DNA from: Phycisphaerae bacterium
GTDB taxonomy: Bacteria > Planctomycetota > Phycisphaerae > Phycisphaerales > UBA1924
Direction: 5' to 3'
Assembly (NCBI GenBank): GCA_016873295.1
Contig: VGXM01000023.1
Span: 1-46,834 of the forward strand
DNA: 46,834 nt
Notes under the pieces: generated by a model
Seen by the model: only the letters and a program-made list of their open reading frames with translations
Databases searched by the model: none
What the model was told of the DNA's origin: nothing
Part shown: positions 36,102 through 39,100 of the stretch, one piece after another
Layout: each line of letters begins with the position of its first letter
Position numbering within the stretch: position 1 is the first letter of the stretch
Program-made: the position numbers and the translations under genes

Positions 36102-39100
36102 ATGCCCGAACGCCCGCACGACAAGGCCCACCCGCACCCGTCGAAGCGCGAGAGCGTCGCGACGGCGCGGGTCGATGCGGCCCTGCCCGCGTACGCCGAG
36201 CTGCGGGTCACGACCAACTTCTCGTTCCTGCGCGGGGCGAGCCACCCGGAGGAGTATGTCGAGCGTGCGGCGGCGCTGGGGCACCGCGCGGTCGCGATCG
36301 CCGACCTGCACACGCTGGCGGGCGTGGTGCGGATGCACGTGGCGGGGAAGCAGGCGGGGATGCCCGTCGTGATCGGGGCAAGAGTGAAGCCGACGGGTCT
36401 TGGGGGCGGGTCATCGGAGTTCGATCCGGTCGGCGAACACGGCGCGGGCTCGCTCCTGCTCTTCCCGTCGTCGCGGGGGGCGTACGGGCGGCTGTGCCGA
36501 CTGCTGACGCTGGGGAAGCGGCGGGCGCCCAAGGGCCAGTGCTTCCTCACGCTGCACGACGTCATCGAGCACCAAGAGGGGATGCTGGCGGTGGTGGTGC
36601 CGCCCGACGGGCCCGCGGCGATGGACGGGCGCTTCGTCGAGACGCTGGCGGGGCTGCGCCGGGTCTTCGACGACGATCGGCTGTCGCTGGCGGCGTCGTG
36701 CGACGGCGGGGCGGACGACGCGGGTCGGCTGGCGCTGCTGGCCCGCCTGGCGACGCACGCGGGCGTGCCCATGGTCGCGACCAACGACGCGCACTACCAC
36801 GACCCGGCGCGGCGGCGGCTGCAGGACGTGCTCGTCTGCATCCGCGAGGGGGTGACGCTGGACCGGGCCGGGCCGCGGCTCTTCCCCAACGACCGGCGCG
36901 GACTGCTCGCGCCGCTGGAGGTGGCGGGGCTGTTCGCGGCGTACCCGTCGGCCCTGGCGCGGAGCGTGGAGGTCGCGGAGCGGGCCCTGGGCTTCGGGCT
37001 GGACCAGATCCGCTACGAGTACCCGGAGGAGGTGTGCCCGGCGGGGATGGAGGCGATGGAGTGGCTGCGGGCGCTCGTGCTCGAGGGCGTGCGCGAGAGG
37101 CACGGGGCGGGGGAGGAGCGAGGCAGCGGGGTGGCGTGCTTTCCGCCCTGGGGAAGCATGTCTTCCTCCCTCCCGTCTCGCTCTCCCGCTCCGTCCCTGC
37201 CCCCCTGTCTCGCTGCCCCGCTGCCTCGCTCCTTCCCTGCCTCGCTGCCCCCCGCCCTTCTCTCCCGCCTGGAGCACGAGCTTTGCCTGATCGAGGAGCT
37301 GGGGTATGCCAAGTACTTCCTCACGGTGCACGACATCGTGCGGTTCGCGCGCTCGCGGGGCATCCTCTGCCAGGGGCGGGGGGCGGCGGCCAACAGCGCG
37401 GTCTGCTACTACCTGGGCATCACGTCGGTGGACCCCGCGCGGATCGACCTGCTCTTCGAGCGCTTCGTGAGCAGGGAGCGCAACGAGCCCCCCGACATCG
37501 ACATCGATTTCGAGCACGAACGACGCGAGGAGGTGATCCAGTACATCTACGCCAAGTACGGGCGGGACCGGGCGGCGTTGACGGCGGAGGTGATCACGTA
37601 CCGCGGGCGCTCCGCCGTGCGCGAGGTGGGCAAGGCCCTTGGCCTCTCGCTGGACCTGGTGGACCGCATGGCCAAGCAGCTGGACTGGTGGGACAAGGGC
37701 GTGGTGAACCGCGGGCTGCTGTCGCGGATGGGCGTGGACCCGGACGACCCGACGATCGCGCTGACGATGGAGCTGTCGGGTCGGTTGCTGGGGTTCCCGC
37801 GGCACCTCTCGCAGCACGTGGGCGGGTTCGTGATCACGCGCGAGCCGCTCGAGGAGATCGTGCCCATCGAGAACGCCGCCATGCCCGACCGCACCATCAT
37901 CGAGTGGGACAAGGACGACCTCGACGCCATGGGCATGCTGAAGGTGGACTGCCTGGGGCTGGGGATGCTCTCGGCGGTGGCGAAGGCCTTGCGCCTGGTG
38001 AACAGTTGGGGCACACGGCCCAACCGGTGGTCGAGTGGTCGAGTGGTCGAGTGGTCGAGCGAGAAGGACGGAGGCGACGCACACGGCGAGCGCGGTCAAA
38101 AGTTTTCGCGATCTGATCGTGTGGCAGAAGGGGCTTTTGATCGCCTCGGCGATCTACGGGGCGACACGCTCCATGCCGAGAGAGGAGGCGTTCGGCCTGA
38201 CGTCGCAGATGCGCCGGGCGGCGTGCTCCATCTCGCTGAACATCGCCGAGGGATTCGGACAGCGCACGCGGCCCAAGTTCATTCCTGGCCTGCGGACCGC
38301 CGTCGGCTCCCTCTACGAACTGATGACCGCGTACCAGATCGCGACGGACCTGCGGCTGATCATGCCGGACCACGCGATCCTTGCGATGCTGAAGGAAGAG
38401 GACCTGCTGCTGTCCTCCCTGATCGCCAAGCTCGAAGCCAAGGACCCACCGGCGACGCGCCGCCGCCGCTCCTGATCGACCACTCGTCCACTCGTCCACT
38501 CGACCACTCCCCCCTCTCCCTCCACTCCATCCCCCCCGAGGACCCCGCCGTCTACGACATGCTCTGCGGGGCCGACTCCGTCGGCGTCTTCCAGGTCGAG
38601 AGCCGGGCCCAGATGTCGATGCTCCCGCGCCTCCGCCCGCGCTGTTACTACGACCTGGTGATCGAGGTCGCGATCGTCCGCCCCGGGCCCATCGTGGGCG
38701 ACATGGTCCACCCGTATCTGCGGCGGCGCAACGGCGAGGAGGCGGTCGAGTACCCCAGCGAGGCGGTGCGGGGCGTGCTGGGCAAGACCCTGGGCGTGCC
38801 CATCTTCCAGGAGCAGGCGATGCGGCTGGCCATCGTCGCCGCCGGCTTCAGCCCCGGCGAGGCCGACCGCCTCCGCCGCGCCATGGCCGCCTGGAAACGC
38901 AAGGGCGACAAGCTCCTCGCCTTCGAGCGCCCCTTCATCGACGGCATGCTCGCCAACGGGTACACGCCCGAGTTCTCGCGCCGCTGCTTCGAGCAGCTCA
39001 AGGGCTTCAGCGAGTACGGCTTCCCCGAGAGCCACGCCGCCAGCTTCGCCCACATCGTCTACGCCTCCGCCTGGCTCAAGAGGCACCACCCCGCCGCCTT

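What the first reader, a model, noticed from the sequence alone, without database searches (positions are those of the whole stretch)
38027..38507. A complete four-helix-bundle gene lies inside dnaE2, bounded by 4+4 inverted octamers
Seen: four tandem GTGGTCGA words, a 23S-IVS-type four-helix-bundle gene in another frame, then four reverse-complement words beginning at the base after the gene's stop codon. The dnaE2 frame is open through the whole 481 bp, so the same DNA encodes two proteins at once, and the insert lies in a linker between conserved polymerase motifs. Established: this protein family is known from intervening sequences in 23S rRNA (Leptospira, Coxiella) and as the fold of Avd. 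Inference: this is a mobile or formerly mobile element whose cargo is the bundle protein, and which tolerates landing in coding sequence.
Basis: partly seen in the sequence, partly recalled or inferred. Interest (0 to 1): 0.93.

Follow-up and report, generated by a model that had tools for sequence, protein, structure and literature searches.

The report
Mobile gene nested inside polymerase gene
A small gene for a four-helix-bundle protein, bracketed by mirrored eight-letter DNA repeats, sits inside the error-prone DNA polymerase gene dnaE2 of a probable planctomycete without closing the polymerase's reading frame; it is likely a mobile element akin to the insertions known from 23S ribosomal RNA genes, and related genes with the same kind of mirrored ends occur in several bacterial phyla.

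Summary
At 38027-38507 a PF05635 four-helix-bundle (FHB) gene, flanked by 4+4 inverted octamers, sits in a dnaE2 linker that is only 51-81 bp in 19 of 29 measured dnaE2 genes. Seven of the 29 carry an FHB gene there, and one relative has one at the homologous place in its replicative dnaE. In all eight the FHB gene is co-directional, at the same frame offset, and the polymerase frame is stop-free (whole armed elements 7/7, elsewhere 1/81; T-ending codons before AA/AG/GA codons 0/158, expected 18). The arrays are typical ends of this gene family: 89 of 120 related FHB loci, and 62 of 80 loci from several phyla, have matched inverted arms of tandem 7-8-bp words (displaced control 1 of 694). Words differ between elements but are mirrored within one. 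Outside dnaE the elements lie between co-directional genes (67:6), mostly just behind stop codons. Solo arrays in a second dnaE2 linker repeat the word of the same genome's FHB element in 4 of 5 genomes. I read it as an IVS-type element living outside rRNA, nested in a polymerase gene and predicted to be read through. How it moves is unknown; arm data favour a DNA foldback over an RNA stem.

The parts
36102..40091 (+). dnaE2 (error-prone DNA polymerase); start at ATG 36102 is my reading, the open frame begins at 34305
38027..38507 (+). FHB element: array, gene, inverted array
38027..38058 (+). 5' array, four GTGGTCGA words
38035..38475 (+). FHB ORF (first start codon is inside the array; Pfam domain 38107-38373)
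38476..38507 (-). 3' inverted array: GTGGTCGA, GTGGACGA, GTGGACGA, GTGGTCGA
39239..39343 (.). solo insert in a second dnaE2 linker, inverted arms of the same octamer word, no FHB gene
37106..37241 (.). solo insert in a third dnaE2 linker, inverted arms with word GCGAGGCA/GCGAGACA, no FHB gene; 6-21 bp there in the other measured genomes
35777..36083 (.). solo element between the upstream gene and dnaE2, inverted arms with word GCGAGACA, no FHB gene

Best explanation
A four-helix-bundle gene between mirrored arrays of an eight-base word sits in a linker of dnaE2, in the polymerase's direction and without a stop codon in its frame, and is likely an IVS-type mobile element that the polymerase mRNA is predicted to be translated through. 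Shown: most relatives have an empty linker; seven dnaE2 genes and one replicative dnaE carry such an element at this place, always co-directional and at the same frame offset; the polymerase frame is kept stop-free; the FHB frame is the one constrained at protein level; the two arms match in register while the word differs between elements. Inferred: the arms form a DNA foldback when single-stranded; copying within that foldback, and slippage, keep the arms alike while the word drifts; the FHB protein, whose family forms oligomers and is related to the retroelement factor Avd, binds the foldback and promotes copying of the element; solo arrays are cargo-less offshoots; the gene depends on host transcription, so that mainly co-directional copies behind stop codons or in open-frame linkers persist. 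The step that moves the element is not identified.
For: Insertion: linker 51-81 bp in 19 of 29 dnaE2, FHB element in 7, solo hairpin in 1, other inserts in 2. Frames: 8 of 8 at the same offset with a stop-free polymerase frame, against 13 of 108 FHB cores and 1 of 81 whole armed elements elsewhere; avoidance of stop-making T endings 0/158, expected 18.3, sister copies 16/150. FHB constraint: differences by codon position 0.374, 0.302, 0.541. Ends: 89 of 120 loci with matched arms, displaced control 1 of 694; 62 of 80 in a wider set, displaced 1 of 148. Register: 84 of 88 and 61 of 69. No sense-strand G-U bias: 69 against 89. Orientation 67:6. Word sharing within a genome: 4 of 5. The DNA strand folds better than all 100 shuffles, z -4.72, as does the RNA, z -4.91.
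Against: No transposase or reverse transcriptase partner: RT in 13 of 40 genomes with FHB and 6 of 21 without. No target-site duplication: repeats of 5 bp or more in 5.6% against 6.0% by chance. No near-identical copies at two sites of one genome; end branches of the FHB tree have median 0.48, so no recent burst. 31 of 120 and 18 of 80 FHB loci lack arms at the threshold. Sites such as groES-groEL are shared by several genera, so old inheritance is part of the picture. This copy's start codon may be lost. Adjacent genes in these loci are co-directional anyway in 226 of 275 pairs, though that does not explain 67:6.
Confidence: 0.58

Rival explanations
1. RNA-level IVS: the arms pair in the transcript, RNase III cuts the stem as in 23S rRNA, and the stem is kept for RNA processing.
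For: Same protein family, terminal stem and tandem heptamers as the Coxiella 23S IVS, which RNase III excises (PMC4990558, passages). Strong co-directionality. The RNA folds better than 100 of 100 shuffles.
Against: Arm mismatches show no sense-strand G-U excess, 69 against 89. The polymerase frame is held open through the insert in 8 of 8, which is needless if the insert leaves the mRNA, and cutting would break the dnaE2 message.
Confidence: 0.17
2. Settled operon gene: the FHB gene is a host gene with a regulatory hairpin, inherited in place, and not a mobile element.
For: The same intercistronic sites are occupied in several genera (78 locus pairs share both neighbours); co-directional 67:6; FHB frame constrained.
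Against: Scattered presence in the DnaE2 tree (7 changes, 3 forced); an element of the same FHB clade in dnaE1 of G018, whose dnaE2 is empty; solo arrays with the same genome-specific word at a second site; arm words differ even at one site.
Confidence: 0.15
3. Relic in a permissive linker: dnaE2 linkers collect any insert that keeps the frame, and this one is a decaying passenger whose open frame is chance in GC-rich DNA.
For: The linker also holds other inserts (G009, G058); the second linker is indel-rich; long open frames are common here; this copy lacks a good start codon.
Against: FHB constraint persists; same frame offset in 8 of 8; the frame is seldom open elsewhere at like GC, e.g. 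6 of 44 cores at GC 0.60-0.65; arms still match.
Confidence: 0.1

Closest known systems
23S rRNA intervening sequence (IVS) with S23p/IVP ORF, e.g. Coxiella burnetii (PMC4990558, passages read)
   Same: FHB-family ORF, terminal inverted repeats forming a stem (28 bp in Coxiella), tandem heptamers at the 5' end, length 428-444 nt against 481 bp here
   Different: Here in a protein gene or between genes, not in 23S rRNA; polymerase frame kept open; excision by RNase III not tested
Rickettsia palindromic elements (PMC10969869, passages read)
   Same: Palindromic inserts read in frame within protein genes
   Different: About 150 bp with a conserved peptide in the host frame; here a second gene in another frame; no sequence comparison made
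MITEs and REP-like repeats (PMC10969869, passages read; PMC3733652, search listing only)
   Same: Short inverted-repeat elements; the solo arrays resemble them
   Different: Ends vary in word from copy to copy, no target duplication found, no transposase known
Avd of diversity-generating retroelements (PMC10053308, passages read)
   Same: Related four-helix-bundle protein (PHROG Avd match E 2e-6 for the G007 copy, 0.009 for this one)
   Different: No reverse transcriptase association
Intergenic tandem heptamers, TAACTGA of Beggiatoaceae (PMC4679880, passages read); cyanobacterial STRR (recalled)
   Same: 7-bp tandem words between genes
   Different: No FHB gene in the passages searched for it; one word there, matched arms with many words here

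Membership tests
23S rRNA IVS | FHB (PF05635) ORF | tested here: met
23S rRNA IVS | terminal inverted repeats able to form a stem | tested here: met
23S rRNA IVS | location in 23S rRNA | tested here: not met
   inside dnaE2; Rfam on 20 of the 80 wider loci found no rRNA
23S rRNA IVS | excision by RNase III | not testable with these tools
   needs RNA; open polymerase frame argues against it here
Diversity-generating retroelement | partner reverse transcriptase | tested here: not met
   own genome only a sub-cut-off hit (22.9 against 29.6 bits); no association
MITE | target-site duplication | tested here: not met
   (89 elements, 14-bp flanks)
MITE | mobilisation in trans by a transposase | not tested
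   no transposase search was made
Rickettsia palindromic element | in-frame insertion in a protein gene | tested here: met
Rickettsia palindromic element | conserved RPE sequence and peptide | not tested
   no RPE sequences were compared
Intein | splicing domain in the host frame | tested here: not met
   no intein domain among Pfam or NCBIfam matches at E 0.001
Group I or II intron | intron RNA structure | tested here: not met
   no intron family at E 0.1 in 34000-41000; three unrelated weak matches below their cut-offs

The most novel reading that the evidence does not exclude
A bacteria-wide class of transposase-free mobile elements whose ends are self-renewing foldbacks: each copy keeps its own 7-8-base word alike in both arms through foldback-templated copying, an FHB oligomer drives copying of the element by the host's own DNA polymerases, and the element rides operons and even codes in a second frame inside a polymerase gene. 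The 23S rRNA IVS would be one local case of this class.
Probability: 0.25. Interest if true: 0.95.

Novelty: new variant of a known kind. Interest (0 to 1): 0.86.

Why it matters
The Coxiella IVS paper calls function and origin of such elements unclear (PMC4990558, passages). Here the same protein family is seen with the same kind of ends between genes and inside polymerase genes, in several phyla. That gives the family a common element anatomy, a testable substrate (the foldback arms), and a clear case of a gene nested in another gene's frame. It may also explain some of the short tandem heptamer and octamer arrays found in bacterial genomes.

Tried and rejected
Reverse-transcriptase partnership (Avd analogy): no association. 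Target-site duplication: none found. RNA-stem signature: no G-U bias. Known defence family: no PADLOC match for three FHB proteins. GTGGTCGA as family word: the other arrays of it in this genome (C26, C32, C57) are one-sided, and I saw no FHB gene in the stretches read. Intein and intron: no match. Literature: ten paper searches of an open-licence library listed no paper that I recognised as describing word arrays around FHB genes outside rRNA; I judged by titles and abstract starts of capped lists, and most subscription papers are not held.

Limits of my tests: gene neighbours come from a home-made codon caller, which missed dnaE in L166. Arms were picked by best local alignment, which favours register. 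The 120 loci come from the 134 rows: 2 rows were merged as second halves of split genes and 12 places, most of them weak, were not fetched. Four of the 120 have internal stops and were dropped from frame and tree tests (116 used). Part of the Planctomycetota rows repeat the 120 loci. Further genomes have dnaE2 matches but no locus among the 29 measured. Phylum labels are my reading of record titles. The one-sided arrays were read by eye. The DnaE2 tree is poorly resolved (14 of 26 inner branches drawn open).

Full report
CHECK. The arrays, the FHB ORF and the open dnaE2 frame are where the finding says. The two inner downstream words differ by one base from the reverse complement. The ORF belongs to PF05635 / TIGR02436, and a profile of 13 relatives matches the solved bundle 2gsc at E 1.4e-39. 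This copy has no start codon between array and domain; an ACG at 38083-38085 stands where the G021 copy has its ATG.

INSERTION. DnaE2 was searched in 61 genomes. In 29 dnaE2 loci the linker between ...SAVAKALR and EDPAVYDML was measured: 19 have 51-81 bp, 7 carry an FHB element (513-678 bp between the markers), 1 (G048) a solo hairpin, 2 (G009, G058) other inserts. G018 has an empty dnaE2, but its DNA polymerase III alpha gene carries an FHB element at the homologous place. In the DnaE2 tree the seven carriers are scattered: 7 changes, 3 forced by well-supported branches, no more clustered than shuffled labels; many forks are weak. In the FHB tree (116 rows) the eight dnaE copies lie in a clade of 17 with nine copies from elsewhere and need 3 changes, 2 forced. 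Repeated insertion and repeated loss are both possible; the dnaE1 copy, sister to the copy of this window, points to at least one change of site.

TWO FRAMES. In 8 of 8 dnaE copies the insert keeps the frame, the FHB gene has the same offset, and the polymerase frame has no stop, while the remaining frame has 3-12. Elsewhere the corresponding frame is open in 13 of 108 FHB cores and in 1 of 81 whole armed elements. FHB codons ending in T before AA, AG or GA, which would make a stop in the polymerase frame, number 0 of 158 against 18.3 expected; nine sister copies outside dnaE have 16 of 150. Differences between dnaE copies fall on FHB codon positions as 0.374, 0.302, 0.541, so the FHB frame carries the protein-level constraint and the polymerase frame is only held open. 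That is expected if the mRNA is translated through the insert, and needless if the insert is removed from RNA. No RNA or protein was seen.

ENDS. In this genome five FHB genes were found (6 rows, one gene split); all five have inverted arms with different words, two of them weak (13.0 and 14.0 against a cross-pair maximum of 13.5). For 120 places (of the 134 rows) the best inverted match between the flanks was scored: own pairs median 20.0, cross pairs 9.0; 99 above the cross 95th percentile, 87 above the 99th, 39 above the 99.9th. At 15.5 or more: 89 of 120, against 1 of 694 displaced windows. The best lag in those 89 arms was 7 or 14 in 54 and 8 or 16 in 29. In 80 loci from genome contigs (the best 80 of 589 relatives) 62 pass, among them 35 of the 50 not labelled Planctomycetota: Bacteroidota 17 of 27, Clostridia 5 of 5, Acidobacteria 4 of 4; cross pairs pass at 2.9%, displaced windows 1 of 148. 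The Coxiella 23S IVS has a 28-bp terminal stem and two to three tandem heptamers (PMC4990558, passages), so the anatomy is shared.

HOW THE ARMS EVOLVE. The arms match each other (0.887) better than neighbouring units within an arm do (0.729) in 84 of 88, and shuffling unit order lowers the match in 61 of 69 (the way arms were chosen favours this). At shared sites the own pair beats every cross pair in 5 of 5 (groES-groEL), 3 of 4 (pdh), 2 of 4 (site B), 5 of 7 (dnaE) and 3 of 6 (dcd-nrdJ): words are inherited for a while and then drift in both arms. FHB genes with 55% or more identity at different sites share arm words more often than those under 40% (different genomes: 17.5% of 63 pairs against 0.6% of 2897). 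Mismatches are not biased to sense-strand G-U, 69 against 89, p 0.13. GC skew of the 5' arm is positive in 76 and negative in 9 of 89. A DNA foldback with templated copying explains register, strand symmetry and word drift; a stem kept by RNA selection should show a G-U excess. This choice is inference.

WHERE THEY LIVE. Of 89 armed elements 6 were called inside a gene, all dnaE; 83 were called between genes, one of these being L166, a dnaE copy that the caller missed. Flanking genes: both co-directional 67, both opposite 6, mixed 8, incomplete 2. The upstream stop codon lies within -10 to +20 bp of the 5' arm in 59 of 76. 78 locus pairs share both neighbours. Neighbours checked for one locus each: GroES and GroEL, dCTP deaminase and NrdJ, PdhB and E2, LivG and LivF; E2, LivG and LivF are best matches below the curated cut-off.

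SOLO ARRAYS. A second dnaE2 linker (39239-39343 here) was measured in 26 loci and holds 57 bp or more in 12. Of these, arrays are seen in 8: hairpins in this genome, G020, G009, G048 and G032, one-sided arrays in G007, G024 and G022. In 4 of 5 genomes with an FHB element and a second-linker insert of at least 100 bp, the insert's best match among 89 armed elements is the same genome's FHB element; in G032 it ranks 7th. In G048 the solos of the two linkers share a word, 27.0 against at most 9.5 with six other genomes. So the word spreads within a genome apart from the gene, which is the best sign of mobility here.

KNOWN OR NEW. It resembles the 23S IVS in protein and ends but not in place, so I file it as a new variant and not a member. 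It fails tested features of inteins, introns, MITEs and DGRs (membership table). In-frame palindromic inserts are known from Rickettsia (PMC10969869, passages). Ten paper searches of an open-licence library listed no description of this element class that I recognised.

VERDICT. Anatomy, insertion, frame conservation and the family-wide ends are shown; mobility is strongly suggested; foldback copying and the role of the FHB protein are proposals.

Noticed in passing
window 35777-36083 and 40100-40115: An element without FHB gene lies between the upstream gene and dnaE2, and another AGCGAGAC array starts just behind the dnaE2 stop codon; the word resembles the arms of this genome's FHB element on C29.
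   Followed up: partly
G000 C26:39831-39894, C32:29741-29812, C57:11666-11761 (L011-L013): One-sided GTGGTCGA/GTGGGCGA arrays sit in a near-identical leader in front of similar gene starts at three places.
   Followed up: partly
window 41953-42870: CCACTC words spaced 183-184 bp and a repeated peptide in the ORFs suggest a tandem repeat of about 183 bp.
   Followed up: no
L067, L069, L071, L082, L084, L158, L186: An FHB gene lies between the same two neighbours in seven genera; in L069 these are GroES and GroEL.
   Followed up: partly
L193 (G009), dnaE2 linker: A 465-bp in-frame insert with a different palindromic repeat (GGTGGAGCGAGCGTGAGCGAGCGGAACC) occupies the same linker.
   Followed up: no
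window 38035-38106: This FHB copy lacks a usual start codon; ACG at 38083-38085 stands where the G021 copy has ATG.
   Followed up: partly
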